A DNA stretch of 64,000 nucleotides from Coniochaeta sp. PMI_546 (Eukaryota > Ascomycota > Sordariomycetes > Coniochaetales > Coniochaetaceae), in contig MU271145.1 of assembly GCA_021432605.1 (NCBI GenBank), positions 2,418,001 to 2,482,000 of the forward strand, in the 5' to 3' direction. Under the pieces are notes generated by a model. It worked only from the letters and a program-made list of their open reading frames with translations. It ran no database searches and was not told the origin of the DNA. A program made the translations under genes and the position numbers. Below, in pieces: positions 2,845 to 64,000 of this stretch; the first letter of the stretch is position 1; every line of letters begins with the position of its first letter.

Positions 2845-5800
2845 ATGGGCACTGGACTCTCAGAGAAGACGTCCGCGAATGCCCTCCCGTCTGGTCGCTC
2901 TTCCAGCCATGGCGACTCCACCGAAGGCACCACGAAGGGAGCCAGACCCGGGGACTTGGAGAAAGCCGACAGCAGAGTGGTAAAGCAGATCGCAAAGGAA
3001 GAAGATGGCGACCCGTACAAGCATCTACCCGAGGACCAGGCTGCTATCCTGAAGAACCAGGTTGTCACCCCCGATGTCAAGGTCGGCATCGCAACTCTGT
3101 ACCGGTATGCCTCGCGCAATGACCTGCTCATCATGGCCGTGTCCGCCGTCGCCGCCATCGCTTCTGGTGCCGCTTTACCCCTGATGACCGTCATCTTCGG
3201 TAACCTGCAAGGGACATTCCAAGACTACTTCCTACACAAGACCACCTATGACGACTTCACGGGCGAGATGGCCCACCTGGTCCTGTACTTCGTCTACCTT
3301 GCCATCGGAGAGTTTGTCGCCACGTACGTCGCCACGGTCGGCTTCATTTACACCGGCGAACACGTCAGCTCAAAGATCCGCGAGCACTACCTCGAGAGCT
3401 GTATGCGCCAGAACATTGGTTTCTTCGATAAACTCGGCGCCGGAGAGGTCACCACGCGTATCACTGCTGATACAAACCTGATCCAGGAGGGTATCTCGGA
3501 GAAGGTCAGCTTGACGCTCGCCGCGGTCGCAACCTTCGTTGCAGCCTTTATAATCGGATTCGTGAGCTACTGGAAACTCACCCTCATCTTATCGAGTACC
3601 GTTTGGGCTCTGCTGCTCTGTATGGGCGGCGGATCGACTTTCATCGTCAAGTTCTCGAAGCAGAACATTAATGCCTACGCCCAGGGCGGCAGCGTTGCCG
3701 ACGAGGTCATTAGCAGTGTTCGCAATGCCGTTGCGTTCGGAACGCAAGATCGTCTGGCTCGGCAATACAATACTCACCTCGTCAAGGCCGAGTTCTTCGG
3801 CTTCAGGCTTAAGATGACTCTGGCCTTTATGGTCGCAGGCATGATGCTGATATTGTACCTCAACTACGGCCTCGCTTTCTGGATGGGTTCCCGGTACCTG
3901 GTCGACGAAGTCATCCCTTTGAGCAAGGTGCTGATAATCATGATGTCCATCATGATTGGTGCCTTCAATATTGGCAATGTCGCGCCAAATGTGCAAGCTT
4001 TTACCACAGCTCTCGGCGCTGCGGCCAAGATTTACAACACGATTGATCGCGTGTCACCGCTTGATCCCGCAACTGATGAGGGCGGCAGGATCGAGAACCT
4101 GGTCGGTGAGATTAGGTTGGAGAACATCAAGCATATCTATCCTTCGCGGCCTGACGTGGTCGTCATGGAGGATGTCTCGCTTACCATCCCTGCCGGTAAG
4201 ACAACTGCTCTCGTTGGCGCGTCAGGCAGCGGAAAATCAACGATCGTCGGATTGGTTGAGAGGTTCTACGAACCCGTCCAAGGCAAAGTCTATCTTGACA
4301 ACGTTGACATCTCTACGCTGAACCTCCGCTGGCTTCGTCGCCAGATCTCTCTGGTGTCACAGGAACCCACCCTTTTCAGCACCACGATATTCGAGAACAT
4401 CAGGCATGGACTGATCGGTACAAAGTGGGAGCACGAGTCCCCAGAGAAGCTGGAAGAGTTAATCCACGAGGCAGCCAGGAAAGCCAATGCTCACGATTTC
4501 GTCACCTCTCTGCCTGAAGGATACCAAACCAACGTCGGCGAGCGCGGCTTCTTACTCAGCGGAGGACAGAAGCAACGTATCGCTATTGCTCGCGCTATCG
4601 TTTCGGATCCCAAGATTCTCCTCCTTGATGAGGCTACCAGTGCTCTCGATACCAAGTCCGAAGGCGTCGTTCAGGCTGCGCTCGAGGTGGCTGCCGAGGG
4701 CAGGACGACTATCACTATCGCGCACAGGCTTTCTACCATCAAGGATGCCCACAACATCGTGGTCATGGCCCAGGGTCGCATCGTCGAGCAGGGTACGCAT
4801 GACGAGCTTCTCGAGAAGCGTGGCGCTTACTACAACCTTGTAACTGCCCAACAGATCGCAGCCGTAAACGAATTGACGCCTGAAGAGGAGGCTGAACTCG
4901 ATAACAAGGAGGAAGAGGGAATTCTCTTGCGGAAGACCACTACTAATCCCAAGGACGGCGCAGCAGCCGAGGCTGGATATGCCGTCGACCCCGACGACGA
5001 CATTGGTGCCAGGTTGAACCGATCGTCAACACAGAAGAGTGCCAGCAGCATAGCGTTCGCGGCCCGTCAAAAGCAGGCCGAGCAAAAGTACGGCTTGTGG
5101 ACGCTCATCAAGCTGATCGGCAGCTTCAACAGGACGGAGTGGCATCTCATGCTTATCGGCCTGGTCTTCTCTGCCATTTGCGGCGCTGGCAATCCTACCC
5201 AAGCGGTGTTTTTTGCCAAGCTCATCAATGCACTGTGAGTACCTTGGTGATGCGCTTATTTCCAGTTGAAGAGACGTGGATGTTCGCTAACCGTCCTCGA
5301 TAGGTCTGTTCCCATCACACCACAGACAATCCCTACTATCCAGCACGAGGCTTCATTCTGGAGTCTCATGTATTTGATGCTCGCATTTGTGATGTTCATT
5401 TCCTTCTCTGTTCAAGGCTCAATCTTTGCTTTATGCAGCGAACGCCTGATTCACCGTGTCCGCGACCGGGCGTTCCGAACAATGCTCCGCCAGGACATTG
5501 AGTTCTTCGACCTGGACGAGAACTCGGCTGGTGCCTTGACGTCCTTCCTCAGCACCGAGACTACGCACGTGGCCGGTCTCAGCGGCGCTACCCTCGGCAC
5601 CCTCCTCATGGTCACCACGACGCTTATCGCCTCAATCACGCTCGCCCTCTCCTTGGGATGGAAACTCGCTCTCGTCTGCATTGCTACCATTCCGATCCTG
5701 CTTGGATGCGGCTTCTTCCGTTTCTGGATGCTCGCACACTACCAACGCCGCGCAAAGAAGGCGTACTCCGGGTCCGCCAGCTACGCGTCCGAAGCCATCA

Positions 5801-56951: not shown

Positions 56952-57800
56952 GATGTGCTGTGTTTCTGTCGTCGACTGGTTCTCTTGAAGTGGTATTATG
57001 AAGTGCAAGAGAGAGATATAGAGAGGGGGATATATTCGAGGTGGTTGTAGCTTGTCCTGGGACTGTTTGTCGGCAGTGATAGTGAACTGATGGAAATTTT
57101 CGTTGGCGGCGAAGAAGAGAGAGCAGCTGTGGTCAATTATCATCATTCTCGGCCGCGGGAGGTGTGGCGTAAGTACCTAATGTACTACTTATTACTAACC
57201 TGAAAGTTCCAGTGGGGCATTCTAATAGCGAGCCACTGCTATCTTAGTCTGTTACCCCTACTGCATAGTACTGGGGCCAGCTCTACCAAGCGACTCATAG
57301 GGCGATGACTCAATTGCACGGCTTGAGCTGCAGCACTCACAGCATTGCCACTGCCTAGTAAATGAGTTCATAATGACTCTTCGCCGCTGCTAACCAGTTT
57401 GAGGTAGAAGGAATTGTCTGAGCCTCGGGTCTATTGCAACGTTTATGGGCACGCAAATAATGTGACGATGGATCAACTGAGTCAACAGTGGTCACAGCAT
57501 GTGCAATTGGAATATGTAACCTTAGCGCTCATGGTCCAAGTCTGAGTTCTGATATTCAATGTAGTCTCTCCAACTGCACGTTGAGGTACTCCCGCTACCA
57601 AACGGGATTCTCCAGAATAACAGTTCTCCGCAGAGACCCTCCAGAACTTTGTAGAGAACGAGAGCCACCCCGTAAATGCATCATAGATCGCAAGATACCG
57701 CAAACCGTACGCCTCAAGACACGCTTAGCCGCCGCTGACTTATAGAACCCCGTCCTGCCAGACATCCAACCATGAACGCCGTTCGCAACTAACGTTAAAA

Positions 57801-57885
<85 letters not shown>

Positions 57886-57887
57886 GC
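56952..57887. other. intergenic: tif6 promoter and 3' flank of the next gene
   Basis: 936 bp. Contains the long CA repeat at 57802-57883. No gene seen. Confidence 0.55.
57802..57883. repeat. (CA)41 microsatellite
   Basis: 82 bp of uninterrupted CA on the plus strand. It ends 4 nt before the stop codon of the neighbouring minus-strand gene, so its mRNA should carry (UG)41 at the very start of the 3'UTR. Confidence 0.95.
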
Positions 57888-59938
57888 CTACCGGTACTCA
57901 ACGTCCGGCACGTATCTCGGCCCAGCAAACCCCTTGGCCGTGATACCCTGGATATCGATATTCGCCCCGTTCTGCGAGCTCCACATCTTCAGCAGTATGA
58001 ACCGTCCGCTCACCGGCGGGTCGAACCGTATGGTGCACTTGTTGCGGTCCTCGCGGATGTGGAAATGCACCAGCGGCGTCATCAGCTCCCCGCCGACCGC
58101 CCGCACCGCCTCCTGCGTCGCGATCTGCGACGCCTCGCGCGCCTCCTGGAGCGACCTGCTCACGCTGTCCTCTCGCGCCGCCGCACCCGCCGCCGCACCC
58201 GCCACCGGCCGCCGCCTGTCGTAGTTCCCGCGCGTCACCTCGTCAAACGCCCCCCAACCCCCCGCGTTGGACTGCACCCACGCGTCGCCCCCTTCGTCGC
58301 TGTCGTCGCTGTTCTCGAAGGGCAGCACGCCGATCCGGTTCGGGATCTGGAGACGCCCAAACGACCGGCTGCGCCGTAGCCCGCCCAGCGCCGCGTCGCC
58401 CTCGGCGTCGTCGTTGCTGCACTCGCTCGTGATGGTGAACGGCGGGGGGGACAGGGTGAATTCGTGCGGAAGCTGCGCTATCTGGCTGCGGCTGGACTCC
58501 ATGTCGTCGTCGTCGCCGTCCGCATCGCCGTCGAAGTCCAGTTGGCTTCGGTGGTGGCTGTCGTAGCTCTGCGCCCACACGGGCGGTAGTCTCGTGACTC
58601 GAGCGCCGTCCTCGCCGTGCCGGATGGAGTAAACAGCCGGTGGAGCTGGAATGGACCTGTTTTCTCGTTCTGCAGCCAGCCGGTCCACGTCTCGGCCGGT
58701 GAGATATTGTATTTGGTACTGGGCGGTCCTGTTGAAGAGCTCGTCCGCATCCATGGCCATGAATACCATGCCTTCTCTTACTCTGTTGCTTTGTCAGCAA
58801 ATATGAAGGATCATTTGAGAAGCGTGGAAGGGAGCTTACGGCGAGGAATAGTTAGACCCCGGACCCTTGATTACGAGCTCGGAGAGGCTGAAGACTGTCG
58901 AGCCTTGGTGTCGGAGGACTATGTTGCATCGGTTTCCCTTGGTACAGTACACGGAGGTGTCGTTCTTCAAGATGTTCTCCGCAGCATACTCGAGTTGGTT
59001 CGAGTACATGCCGCCGTCACAGCTCACGAGCTCCATGGTCAGCTGGCCGGGCTCAGACTGGCCGTACTTCCCGTACCGGAATCCTCGGTACAGATGCGCT
59101 GCCTTGTCCGAATCCAACCGCCGCCGCTTCACTCTGCGGCCCTCGTCGTGGTGGTCGAGGTTACGCAGCGGTGGCGACAGCTCTCGGGGCGGCATTGTCG
59201 GTAGTATGGGGGTCGTGTCTGTGAAGTCGAGTAAGGTTCGGAGGTGAGAGTTTGCGTCCTCTAGGCGCTCGAGGCTGTCGACGCTGGAACTGGCAGCTGG
59301 GGTCCTGTTGTCGGCCATCAAGCGTCGGTATCTCTCCATCCGCAGGTCCGCCCAGTGCAGTCGCTCCCGCGGATTATCTGTCGAGATGAGACGGCGCGAG
59401 CCCAAGGACCGCAGAGGAGGGAGTGACGGTGTGTGGGAAGCGTTGCTGGAGATGCCTGGCAGCTCCACAGACCGCAAGTCGTCCAAGGCCCCGCTCGATG
59501 CCTGTGGGCTCCTAGTAAATCTCCTCCGGAGGTCCCTCTCTGAGCCCGAGGACATGCTGCTGCCTTGGGACTGGGCAGCTGGGATTTCGCGGCGGACGCG
59601 GTCGACGTTGCGGTGGAACCTTTCTATAGCCCTGTACAGTTCTCCGGACGGGCTGACGGTGGCCGTAGGCGGCCGGTCATCGAGAATGGAGTGGATGATC
59701 TCGGTGGCGATGCGATACCGTCGTGCGTTGTCCAGCGGCGGTTGGTGGTGAGGAGGAGGGGTCTCAGACTGACAAAGAACATGTAAGTGACGAGTTATAT
59801 AGCTTGTGGTAGAGAGCACAAAGGGCAGCGTATCAGGAATAGACGGTGCGAGATTGGCGAGACATCCGGAAAAGGGCAGTGAATGCAACAAGGCTCGGAA
59901 CACATCACGGTTGAGAGGCGAGGAGAATAGCTCACCAT
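57888..59938 (-). CDS. conserved protein with discoidin-like region, function unknown
   Basis: Proposed exons on the minus strand: 59938-59936 (ATG only), 59768-58840 and 58782-57888; 608 aa. The open frame of the large exon continues upstream without an ATG. A GTGAG donor directly after an ATG at 59938, and a TTTGTCAG acceptor before SETPPPHHQPPLDNARR, give a natural start MSETPPP. The N-terminal 240 residues are polar and Arg/Ser-rich. Then comes MELVSCDGGMYSNQLEYAAE, followed by NILKNDTSVYCTKGNRCNIV and LRHQGSTVFSLSELVIKGPG, which resembles the first half of a galactose-binding/discoidin fold. The last 60 residues (HIREDRNKCTIRFDPPVSGR, then LLKMWSSQNGANIDIQGI) look like its closing strands, with a long acidic insert between. 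I do not know the family name. Chromatin or ubiquitin-ligase adaptor roles are possible but unsupported. Confidence 0.75.
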
Positions 59939-60556
59939 GAAGCGATAAGGACTCGGTGAATGCAGTGGGTGGTGCGACTCTGGAGTTCCAACTTTGGAGA
60001 TGTTCTGTTCGGCTTGGAGTTGCCTTTCGATGGAAAAAAGCCGGCACAGTGAAATATCTTCTCAGCAAAGGCTACGGCAGGAGCGGAATGAGCTGCGGAG
60101 TTGAAGATGGAATCAGGTACGAGCCAGAGGATCATGATGCGAGGAGGTTTTGAGTGGCCGTGGTACGAATCGACGACTGAGCCACTTAGGTTGACACAAT
60201 GTTCAGCACCAAACGGCGGGGGAGTTTAATGGCACCAATAGCGTGTTGGCCGGTGTCTGGCAGGCGTAATTAGGTTGGTAGGAGTTACCGAGTCATCTCA
60301 TCATAACCGACCTAATATTATGACAAAAAAGCCAGTGACTTGGTACCTCTTAAACACGCATTAGCCGTGCTTTGCCTCTCAACTCCAGGCGTGCATCTCA
60401 TTTTTTATATGGACAGTGAAACTGAAACGAAACAAATCATTCTTCCCTGAACCGGGTTCACGTATGTTACACTGTGTCTCATTACTTGATACCTTACTCA
60501 TTCACAAGTTTCGTCCAGCGACTCTTACACGTGTAGGCTGATGATCACAGTACAGC

Positions 60557-60609
60557 GAGTGCCGGGATAGGGACATCCTACGGTATGAAGGGCACATATT
60601 ACTAGCCGT
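60557..60609 (+). repeat. left terminal inverted repeat
   Basis: Pairs with 61434-61382. The first 19 bases are identical to the other arm, then there is a diverged middle and a second conserved block of about 25 bases with one mismatch. Confidence 0.85.
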
Positions 60610-61008
60610 TTTTAGAAGATGCCAGCTGTCATACTTTGGCAGGTCCACCCATACCAAAATTAGCTGTAAAGTGACTTCTTGGCGTATGTATCCAGCCATT
60701 TGCGCAGACCTGCCACCGTACTGTAAGAATATTGTACGGTTGAAGCCATCGCGATGCTCAAAGCGAGCCAATTCTTCCAAATCCGTAGAGTTTTCAAAAG
60801 AGTGACGATTTCAGGCGGTCAAATACGGCAGAATTGTATTCAATTGAGTGTAAACTGTAAGGCAGGCCACGCCTACTGCCCGGCGCCGGCGGCTGCTTAT
60901 ACTTGCCAGGTCGATTGATGGAACCCGAGATACTGTACTACGCCTACCGTTGACCTCGCCGGCGCCAGTGAGGCTGGTGATAATTGTACGTGTTGTAGGG
61001 GACATCGT

Positions 61009-61060
61009 GGATTCGTGGATTGAGGGACGACGGCATGGATTCGCGGATTGAGGGACGGCG
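61009..61060 (+). repeat. 28-bp tandem duplication inside the element
   Basis: Two adjacent copies of GGATTCG[T/C]GGATTGAGGG followed by ACG-GCGTAG/ACGACGGCAT; unit length 28 bp, second copy starting at 61037, one mismatch in the first 21 bases. Confidence 0.8.
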
Positions 61061-61381
61061 TAGATAACGGCGATAAGAATCGCGACCGCGAAACCGCAGT
61101 CGAAGGTCTACAGGTGGAATTGCATAGGATTTAACATCTACAATAGCCATCGATCGAGTTTAGTTACATTGAGTTGAAGGCAATCGAAGTATTCGAGATG
61201 TAAGAAGGTACTATTTTGTGTGGGAATCTAGCGTTAGTTGCACTTAATTGACCTGCGCGGCCTGGGCATATATTCTCGCAGTCTCTGGCAAAGGCTGCGG
61301 GAAATGCTGGCGAAGTCGCGCCAAGGCGCTACAGGGCAGTGGGTAGGCCCGCCAGGCGGCAGGTGTGGGCCGCCGCCTAAT

Positions 61382-61434
61382 ACGGCTAGTAGTATGTGCC
61401 CTTAGCAGGTCGGGGTGTCCCTATCCCGGCACTC
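61382..61434 (-). repeat. right terminal inverted repeat
   Basis: Inverted partner of 60557-60609; see the element entry. Confidence 0.85.
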
Positions 61435-61651
61435 CAGTACAGCACTACACTACAGCCAGCACTTATCGCGTCTCAACCTCGAAGCACTTTACTGTGTCAA
61501 GGTTTGCGTGAAGGTCAATTCTCACCACCGTGAACCTGAACTCGAACCTTGACCCTCAACAAACAGAGATCCAGACCATCACTTATCCCCACCTGGGTCG
61601 ATTCAATTACTCATTCATACTCTCTCTTGTCTGTGCGCACTGTCAGCCAAC

Positions 61652-62968
61652 ATGGCGTCAAACGGGACACCAGTTCCGGGCACTGCGGTATCAGACCAGC
61701 CCGCTGCAGCCGCTGCCAGTAATGGAGCAGCACCGTCACAGCCATCCAACGTTATAAGCAAGGGTGCGTCAATAGTCGCCGTGCATGATCTGTCAAAGAG
61801 CTAACCCAGAAACACAGACGAGATCGCCCTCTATGACCGGCAAATACGTCTCTGGGGCATGAAAGCACAGGAGAAGATCCGAAAGGCCAACATCCTCCTC
61901 ATCACCATCCAGGGCTTGGGCAGCGAGATTGCCAAGAATCTCGTCCTCGCAGGCGTCGGGGCTATCACCGTAGTCGATCATGAAGTCGTTACCGTTGTGG
62001 ATCTGGGCGCTCAGTTCCTCATCACGGCCGAGCATATCGGCATGAACCGCGCTCTGGCCGCAAGCGAAGCCCTCCGCCGCCTCAACCCCCGTGTCGAGGT
62101 CACCGTGGATACGGACGACATCCGCTCCAAGGGACCCAGCTACTTCCAGCCGTTCAGCGTCGTGATCGCTACAGACCTCGATTCCAGCACCTTAAACGTC
62201 ATCAACACCGCCACGCGCCTCAACAACCGCCCATTCTACGCCGCCGGCTCCCACGGCATGTACGGCTTCATCTTCGCAGACCTTATCGAGCACGACTACG
62301 TCATCGAGCGCGCCAAGAGCAACGTCACCACCGCGCTCAAGGCCGAATCGCGCACCCGCTCCGTCATCGCGGTCAACACCAAGAAGGACGACGACAAGAT
62401 CGAGCAAGTCACCAAGCGAGAGCTATATAGCACCTGGCTCCTCGCCTCCGACGTCGCCCCTCTCCCCGCAGAGATCACCAGCTCGGCCCGCCGCCGCCGC
62501 GCCGTCACCCCCGCCCTCAGCTGCCTCCGCGCCCTCTGGGAGTTCACGCAGCTGCACGGCCGGGCCCCGAGCCAGGGCAGCCGCGACGACCTGGCCCAGT
62601 TCACCCTCCTGGCCGGCCAGAAGCACGCCGCCCTCGGCCTGCCGTCCGAGACCCTCCGGAGCGAGTTCCTCAGGAGCTTCCTGCAGAACATCGGCGGCGA
62701 GGTCTCGCCCGTCACCGCCGTGCTCGGCGGCCAGCTCGCCCAGGACGTCATCAACGTGCTGGGCCAGAACCAGCAGCCGATCCAGAACATGGTCGTCTTC
62801 GACGGCGAGGCCATCGAGGCCAACATGTACGCCCTGCACTGCGACGGCGAGCTGGGCGCCAGGCTGCTGTCGGCTGCGCCCCAGGCGATGGCCGCTGCGA
62901 CTAACGGGAACGGTGTGCCGCCGCCGCCGCCGGCTATGGAGCCGTCGCAGGTCATTAGCTTGGATTGA
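61652..62968 (+). CDS. aos1: SUMO-activating enzyme E1 subunit Aos1
   Basis: Two exons, 61652-61763 and 61818-62968; 420 aa. After an Ala/Ser/Pro-rich leader comes DEIALYDRQIRLWGMKAQEK, a hallmark of E1-like ThiF-fold proteins. The nucleotide-binding loop IQGLGSEIAKNLVLAGVG and acidic strand TVVDHE follow (about 70-95), then GAQFLI, NPRVEV and YAAGSHGMYGFIF. Near the C-terminus LGGQLAQDVINVLGQ-QQPIQNM (about 355-380) matches the last helices of Aos1. There is no catalytic cysteine domain, as expected: the cysteine lies in the partner Uba2. The heterodimer activates SUMO in the nucleus. The C-terminus carries a Gly/Pro-rich tail (NGNGVPPPPPAMEPSQ). The intron keeps frame (VISK-DEIALYDRQ). Confidence 0.93.
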
Positions 62969-64000
62969 TCGGTTGGGTTACGCCGGGTTACCGCAGTATT
63001 TCGAGCTTTGGCCGTGATACAGATTCGCTCAGTTTTCTTTGGGGCTTTCTTCGGTTCAGCCAGAAAAAATGGATTTAATGAGGCATGGCAGGCACGGTAA
63101 ATTGAAAGCGGATAACAGTTCATGTACTTGTATGCGGTTCTGCTTTGGGGCAAGGGGTGGCACGGAGAGTCACTGGCGTTTATCTGGTAAAAGGAATAGC
63201 CACATTGGGTCATGGGGTAGCGAGCCATGAGACGAGATACCAGGGGTTTTACTGACTTCAGCTCTCCTGCTGTTCGTCCTTTTCTGTTGTAGGTATCAGA
63301 AAAGCTCTGTAGAGCACTGCGTCTAGAGAAAATTGATACCATTGCATCACAGTGAGCACATGAGCTCTTCATAACCTTCGACTCACATGTGTGAAGAATG
63401 GGAGATAGATAATTGCAACCTCGTGAATAGTCCGTGCCGTTCCTTTTCCCCCAGGCCATGTCCATGGCAATGGATGGTGGATGGGGAGGATCTAGCTACA
63501 GTCGTCTTCGCTAATCATCTCTGTAACACCTGGAACCTGCGAGACCCGAAGTCCAGCCTCTCCATGGTGCAGTGATTATGATTAACTACTCTACAAATAT
63601 CATTCAAATCAGACAGTGACTATCGTAGTCTATCTCGCACTCCTCGGCTCACAACTCCACGTCTCAAAGGATGTGATAGATCATGAACATATATCACATG
63701 GCATATAACTACTTGTTTGAGTCTACACGTCAAAGCAATGATGACCGGTCACTTGGCGCATCTCACACGAAGTCCATCAATATCAACATGTCTCATCCGC
63801 CTCCAAGCCTCAGTCTTCACCATGTCACCCCCAGCCTAAACAAGACCACTTCGCACGCCTAGATCACAAGTGCAGAAGTGTTCCCAAAGGTTTCGTGTGT
63901 AATATAATACGTGATATTACTCATGCTGGGGGGCCTACTGAGCCAAATGCAATGCTGCCTGGACGGCCACTCCTGGTCCGCCAGAGGGGGAAAAAGAAAC
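62969..64000. other. downstream of aos1 to window end, no gene seen
   Basis: 1.03 kb. The first part is the aos1 3' flank. From about 63600 on the sequence is more AT-rich and lacks any coding signal. A neighbouring gene may begin beyond the edge. Confidence 0.45.

What the first reader, a model, noticed from the sequence alone, without database searches (positions are those of the whole stretch)
60553..61437. 885-bp element with ~53-bp inverted ends next to TA, no transposase
Two distant stretches, 60557-60609 and 61382-61434, are near-perfect inverted copies in two conserved blocks separated by a diverged block of equal length. TA dinucleotides flank both ends. This is the architecture of a non-autonomous Tc1/mariner-pogo-like element. 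It sits in the promoter-side region of aos1 and of the 57.9-kb gene, where it could affect either. The two-block TIR and an internal 28-bp duplication may define an undescribed MITE family.
Basis: partly seen in the sequence, partly recalled or inferred. Interest (0 to 1): 0.7.

Follow-up and report, generated by a model that had tools for sequence, protein, structure and literature searches.

The report
Deleted Mutator-like jumping gene remnant

Summary
The inverted ends are real: 45 of 56 bases pair, the clear outlier of the window (next best 35 of 56). The classification is wrong. The element is 60557-61434 (878 bp), flanked by a perfect 9-bp direct repeat, CAGTACAGC (60548-60556, 61435-61443). 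I group the genome matches into ten places including the window. Of four copies with both outer ends recognisable, three have perfect 9-bp duplications, each different; one has none. A 4,006-bp relative on the same contig carries a MULE transposase domain (PF10551, 60-64 bits), broken by 21 in-frame stops, none TGA, with a strong repeat-induced point mutation (RIP) signature. Only one other copy (C6) shares that filler. Verdict: an ordinary low-copy non-autonomous Mutator-like element. It ends 208 bp before the putative aos1 start codon; an effect there is untested.

The parts
60548..60556 (.). left copy of the 9-bp target site duplication CAGTACAGC
   Evidence: 0 mismatches of 9 to 61435-61443
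60557..60612 (+). left terminal inverted repeat (56 bp): box 1 about 60557-60578, variable spacer, box 2 about 60588-60612
   Evidence: 45 of 56 bases pair with the right end; the TIR pattern is exact here and at 11 other ends of family copies in the genome
60613..60997 (.). subterminal sequence kept from one end of the parent element
   Evidence: matches C11b at 92-94% and C3F at 80%
60998..61056 (.). filler at the deletion junction; holds the 2 x 28-bp tandem duplication 61001-61056
   Evidence: not aligned to C11b; its core pattern has 4 matches in the genome at up to 3 mismatches, two here and two in C6, backward-read control 0
61057..61378 (.). subterminal sequence kept from the other end of the parent element
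   Evidence: matches C11b at 89%
61379..61434 (-). right terminal inverted repeat (56 bp)
61435..61443 (.). right copy of the 9-bp target site duplication CAGTACAGC
61652..62968 (+). neighbouring gene, aos1-like (putative start ATG 61652, an intron assumed before 61805); not part of the element

Best explanation
A non-autonomous Mutator-like DNA transposon (MULE). A parent element of about 4 kb lost its transposase gene but kept both ends, with a filler holding a tandem 28-bp unit at the repair junction. It was moved in trans by a related MULE transposase and inserted 208 bp upstream of the putative aos1 start, duplicating 9 bp of target. Shown: the ends, the 9-bp duplication, two other copies with their own 9-bp duplications, a related full-length copy with a MULE domain, and a junction filler shared by two copies. 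Inferred: that the deletion arose by faulty repair, that a transposase acted in trans, and that the family is now immobile because its only recognisable transposase gene (C3F) was ruined by RIP.
For: Perfect 9-bp duplication at the window copy, C1a and C3F. Twelve exact TIR-pattern matches in the genome, all at family copies. C3F, the 4,006-bp relative, holds PF10551 at 64.4 bits and 60 bits, cut-off 27.6. The window element equals the two ends of C3F-like and C11b-like elements with the middle missing. C11b and C2 still hold the first 40-47 aligned codons of the transposase frame.
Against: The window copy itself has no transposase remnant, so the link to MULE is through relatives that are 80% identical in the shared parts. 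C11b has both ends but no target duplication, and C1b has one eroded end and none. C6, the only copy with the same filler, has lost its outer ends, so its own insertion cannot be checked. No empty site could be examined.
Confidence: 0.95

Rival explanations
1. A non-autonomous Tc1/mariner-pogo element with a TA target duplication.
For: TA stands 4 bases outside each end of the inverted repeat.
Against: The direct repeat is 9 bp. The duplications of C1a and C3F hold no TA. The related full-length copy matches MULE and no other Pfam family at E 0.001.
Confidence: 0.01
2. A hAT-type non-autonomous element.
For: Short target duplication and inverted ends.
Against: hAT duplications are 8 bp (recalled; PMC3441728 passage gives 8 bp for VdHAT1); here 8 bp does not fit and 9 bp does. 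The related transposase is MULE.
Confidence: 0.01
3. The insert has been recruited as a regulatory part of the aos1 promoter and is kept by selection. This adds to the main explanation rather than replacing it.
For: It ends 208 bp before the putative aos1 start. Several other copies lie about 180-310 bp upstream of first-ATG frames, three of them with Pfam domains (OTCace_N, JAB, AdoHcyase).
Against: MULEs tend to insert in or near genes (PMC6446971, start of abstract), which explains the place without selection. The bias was not tested against chance; C3F, C1b and C5 show no clear case. No expression or conservation data. In Fusarium oxysporum promoter deletions excluded a direct role of mimps in effector expression (PMC3599309, passages).
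Confidence: 0.07

Closest known systems
Hop (Hop1) of Fusarium oxysporum and VdMULE1-3 of Verticillium dahliae (fungal Mutator-like elements)
   Same: Superfamily with the MULE domain, TIRs of tens of bases, short direct repeats near the ends, many defective copies (PMC3441728, passages).
   Different: Their terminal consensus is GGNAA (PMC3441728, passages); here the ends read GAGTG, GAGTA or GACAC. One VdMULE had an 8-bp duplication; here 9 bp.
MULE-Cglob, Hop sub-group of Ascomycota
   Same: TIR of 51 bp in Table 1 of PMC6446971 (passages); here 56 bp.
   Different: Sequences not available here, so no comparison was made.
Internally deleted, non-autonomous Mutator elements and Pack-MULEs of plants
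   Same: MULE ends kept and transposase lost (PMC6446971, passages).
   Different: No captured host-gene fragment is seen: outside the 59-bp filler the inside aligns with family copies.
mimp and mFot5, Tc1/mariner-type MITEs of Fusarium oxysporum
   Same: Short elements with inverted ends near gene starts (PMC3599309, passages).
   Different: Other superfamily; here the duplication is 9 bp and the related transposase is MULE.

Membership tests
Mutator superfamily (MULE) | target duplication of 8-11 bp (PMC6446971, passages) | tested here: met
   9 bp in 3 of the 4 copies with both outer ends recognisable, the window copy among them; C11b has none
Mutator superfamily (MULE) | terminal inverted repeats | tested here: met
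   56 bp, 45 pairing; shorter than the >100 bp called typical in PMC5225508 (passages) but in the range of fungal groups in PMC6446971 Table 1 (passages)
Mutator superfamily (MULE) | MULE transposase in an autonomous member with the same kind of ends | tested here: met
   C3F: PF10551, 64.4 and 60 bits, gene broken by stops. In the relative, not in the window copy.
Hop/VdMULE group | terminal consensus GGNAA | tested here: not met
   ends GAGTG, GAGTA, GACAC
Hop/VdMULE group | direct repeats within the TIR | tested here: inconclusive
   best self-match offset is 21 bp in 11 of 12 related ends, but a self-match of 9 of 13 occurs in 380 of 2,000 shuffles of one end
Hop/VdMULE group | transposase in the Hop clade | not tested
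   no reference transposases at hand
Tc1/mariner (pogo) | TA target duplication | tested here: not met
   9-bp duplication; two of three contain no TA
MITE | many copies of one short uniform element | tested here: not met
   two places share the filler; about ten family places in all (lower bound)
Pack-MULE | captured host-gene fragment | tested here: not met
   inside = family ends plus 59-bp filler, whose core is found only in the window copy and C6 at up to 3 mismatches

The most novel reading that the evidence does not exclude
A fungal MULE lineage distinct from Hop, with a two-box TIR in which each end carries a related short recognition motif twice, two helical turns (21 bp) apart. Its only recognisable transposase-bearing copy was destroyed by RIP, while derivatives shorter than about 1.5 kb largely escaped and persist close to gene starts.
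Probability: 0.35. Interest if true: 0.4.

Novelty: new member of a known kind. Interest (0 to 1): 0.27.

Why it matters
It adds a low-copy Mutator-like family with defined ends and a broken full-length relative to a compact, probably fungal genome, and corrects a misleading TA-based classification. The contrast between a heavily RIP-marked 4-kb copy and lightly marked copies of 0.8-1.4 kb fits the idea that shortness protects non-autonomous elements from RIP, which can be tested over many genomes.

Tried and rejected
Tc1/mariner with a TA target: rejected by the 9-bp duplications.

The MULE gene on contig C8 (L029) as the mobilising partner: it has a good MULE domain (95.1 bits, 94.1), but in the 8.5 kb around it the best of 13 listed inverted pairs is 29 nt at 72%, and the TIR pattern has no match on C8 at up to 2 mismatches. 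No connection is shown.

The 21-bp repeat in the TIR as a proven pair of binding sites: the self-match is not rare in shuffles (380 of 2,000). Kept as inference only.

Naming the organism by 5.8S rRNA: no match in the held assembly.

Rfam families: none in 58000-64000 at gathering scores.

The TIR letters in print: 3 papers hold one of five strings each, two on Paracoccus and one on Dent disease, unrelated by title and abstract start. 'MULE-MITE' or 'Mutator MITE' with 'fung': one plant review. The wider searches were seen as listings; from them passages of PMC6446971, PMC3599309, PMC3441728 and PMC5225508 were read, no paper as a whole. So this family was not found in print with these five searches of an open-licence library; Repbase could not be searched.

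Full report
OBSERVATION. The inverted ends are at 60557-60612 and 61379-61434. Two blocks (22 nt, 95%; 25 nt, 92%) are separated by an unmatched stretch of equal length. Over 56 bp 45 positions pair; among inverted 56-mers with an outer span of up to 1.5 kb in the 64,000 bases (best per antidiagonal) the next best has 35 of 56. The TIR pattern occurs twice in the window; 1 of 100 shuffles had as many at up to 3 mismatches, while both real matches have none. The ends are not a chance match.

BOUNDARIES. Directly outside the ends are two identical 9-mers, CAGTACAGC, at 60548-60556 and 61435-61443 (0 mismatches). Lengths 5-8 and 10-12 give 4 to 10 mismatches, and length 4 gives 1. The element is 878 bp.

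COPIES. A DNA search of the genome (33.5 Mb, 24 contigs) gave 26 matching pieces. I group them into ten places: the window copy, C6 (265.7 kb), C11a and C11b (97.7-99.5 kb), C1a (2,247 kb), C2 (3,064 kb), C1b (3,820 kb), C3F (contig C3, 1,968-1,972 kb), C1c (1,901 kb) and C5 (2,490 kb). A further 75-bp match lies on C1 at 435.7 kb. The tool calls its counts lower bounds. The TIR pattern with a fixed 15-base gap gave 18 matches at up to 2 mismatches: 12 exact, 2 with one, 4 with two. The 14 best lie at family copies, the 4 weakest elsewhere; the backward-read control gave 7 in all, its mismatch numbers not shown. Four copies have both outer ends recognisable: the window copy, C1a (whose ends begin GACAC), C3F and C11b. 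The first three have perfect 9-bp duplications (CAGTACAGC, CACCATCAG, CGCGTGGAT; searches show the same for the window copy and C3F, while one search set the end of C1a one base short). C11b has none. C1b has one eroded end and no duplication.

SUPERFAMILY. C3F is 4,006 bp with ends GAGTAGCGGGATAGG. The MULE domain has two places in the genome: inside C3F (64.4 bits, cut-off 27.6) and on C8 (95.1 bits). Read with X at its stops, the C3F frame matches only MULE in Pfam at E 0.001 (60 bits, positions 2-99 of 99); an NCBIfam scan of a piece found nothing. MULEs make duplications of 8-11 bp (PMC6446971, passages). Ends, duplication and domain agree: Mutator superfamily.

HOW THE WINDOW ELEMENT AROSE. 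Against C3F turned to the same direction, window element positions 63-441 match C3F 74-486, 526-771 match 3672-3920 (both 80%) and 820-878 match 3948-4006 (77%); about 3.2 kb in the middle are missing. Against C11b (1,434 bp) the window element matches at 89-94% over positions 1-441 and 501-878; positions 442-500 (60998-61056) are unmatched. These hold the tandem 28-bp unit 61001-61056. Its core occurs only in the window copy and in C6 (two matches each, control 0). These two copies are 91% identical over 811 columns with gaps and 94.8% over 774 aligned bases. C6 has lost both outer ends. C11b and C2 hold the beginning of the transposase frame (24 of 40 and 26 of 47 residues identical to C3F; E 1e-13 and 5e-16 in a two-sequence comparison without composition correction). 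That several deletions were independent is inferred from the different structures.

RIP. The C3F frame (L014 1738-3840) holds 21 stops, 14 TAG and 7 TAA, no TGA. If the three stops were equally likely, that has a probability of 2e-4. Introns were not modelled. The composite RIP index of C3F is 0.93, against a mean of -0.50 (sd 0.29, maximum 0.13) for 900-bp steps of the window; nine shorter copies lie between -0.94 and 0.19, the window element at -0.05 (some of these stretches include flank, and lengths differ). C1a at 0.19 lies above the window maximum. Transitions at CpA carry T in C3F more often than in the shorter copy in each of four comparisons: 24 to 10 (C1b), 31 to 7 (window), 48 to 14 (C11b), 35 to 5 (C2). 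In the seven pairs of short copies compared, the numbers are 8:11, 7:11, 14:16, 19:23, 6:5, 10:7 and, uneven, 21:10 (C11b against C2). Transitions among short copies are also often at CpA, so light RIP of short copies is possible. The genome has DNA-methylase matches over the cut-off at three places: C14 (139.7 bits), C5 (two pieces, 105.6 and 50.6) and, just over it, C17 (23.0 against 22). This is compatible with RIP; which of them, if any, does it is untested. That RIP stopped the family is inferred.

TIR ARCHITECTURE. Over 12 of the 14 ends (C1c and C5 left out because they carry an extra base or diverge), positions 8-22 (mean 1.80 bits) and 33-57 (1.63) are conserved, while 23-32 (0.96) vary at fixed length. 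A GGCACAT-like motif stands in both boxes 21 bp apart; 21 is the best self-match offset in 11 of 12 ends, 19 in the right end of the window copy. The ends are related, so these are not independent, and a self-match of 9 of 13 is reached in 380 of 2,000 shuffles of one end (which itself reaches 11). Two transposase contacts two helical turns apart is an inference.

SURROUNDINGS. The aos1-like frame has a ThiF domain (119.1 bits); its putative start is ATG 61652, 208 bp after the duplication. The two frames of the minus-strand gene on the other side have no Pfam match. Of the other copies, C11a lies about 180 bp from the first ATG of an OTCace_N frame, C2 about 300 bp from that of a JAB frame, C1c about 300 bp from that of an AdoHcyase frame; C6 (about 215 bp), C11b (about 190 bp) and C1a (about 240 and 250 bp) lie upstream of frames without a Pfam match. 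C3F, C1b and C5 show no clear case. First ATGs are not annotated starts, and the bias was not tested against chance.

COMPARISON. Fungal MULEs with TIRs of tens of bases, short repeats in the TIR and defective copies are known: Hop and VdMULE1-3 (PMC3441728, passages). Their terminal consensus GGNAA is not met here. PMC6446971 Table 1 (passages) lists ascomycete groups with 9-bp duplications (Phantom-Ca, TIR 34 bp) and with a 51-bp TIR (MULE-Cglob); neither could be compared in sequence. No print match to the ends was found. Verdict: a new member of a known kind, ordinary in mechanism.

Noticed in passing
L029:4040-4564 (G000 contig C8, about 1,087 kb): A second MULE domain (94-95 bits) in an open frame of 174 aa, without inverted ends like those of this family in the 8.5 kb around it: another MULE or a host gene made from one.
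   Followed up: partly
L010:1174-2997 (G000 contig C11, 97.7-99.5 kb): Two family copies in the same direction, a truncated one and a 1,434-bp one, 38 bp apart, between two divergent open frames, one with an OTCace_N domain.
   Followed up: partly
L014:4353-4673 and matching internal parts of other copies: Short tandem-repeat stretches inside the elements, of different length and unit in different copies, seen as repetitive translations.
   Followed up: no
G000 C14:14912-16072, C5:2003562-2004431, C17:561436-561651: DNA-methylase domain matches, two strong and one just over the cut-off; candidates for the RIP or maintenance methylase, not examined.
   Followed up: no
window 57799-57890: A CA microsatellite beside the end of the minus-strand gene, seen as a His-Thr run in the plus-strand translation.
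   Followed up: no
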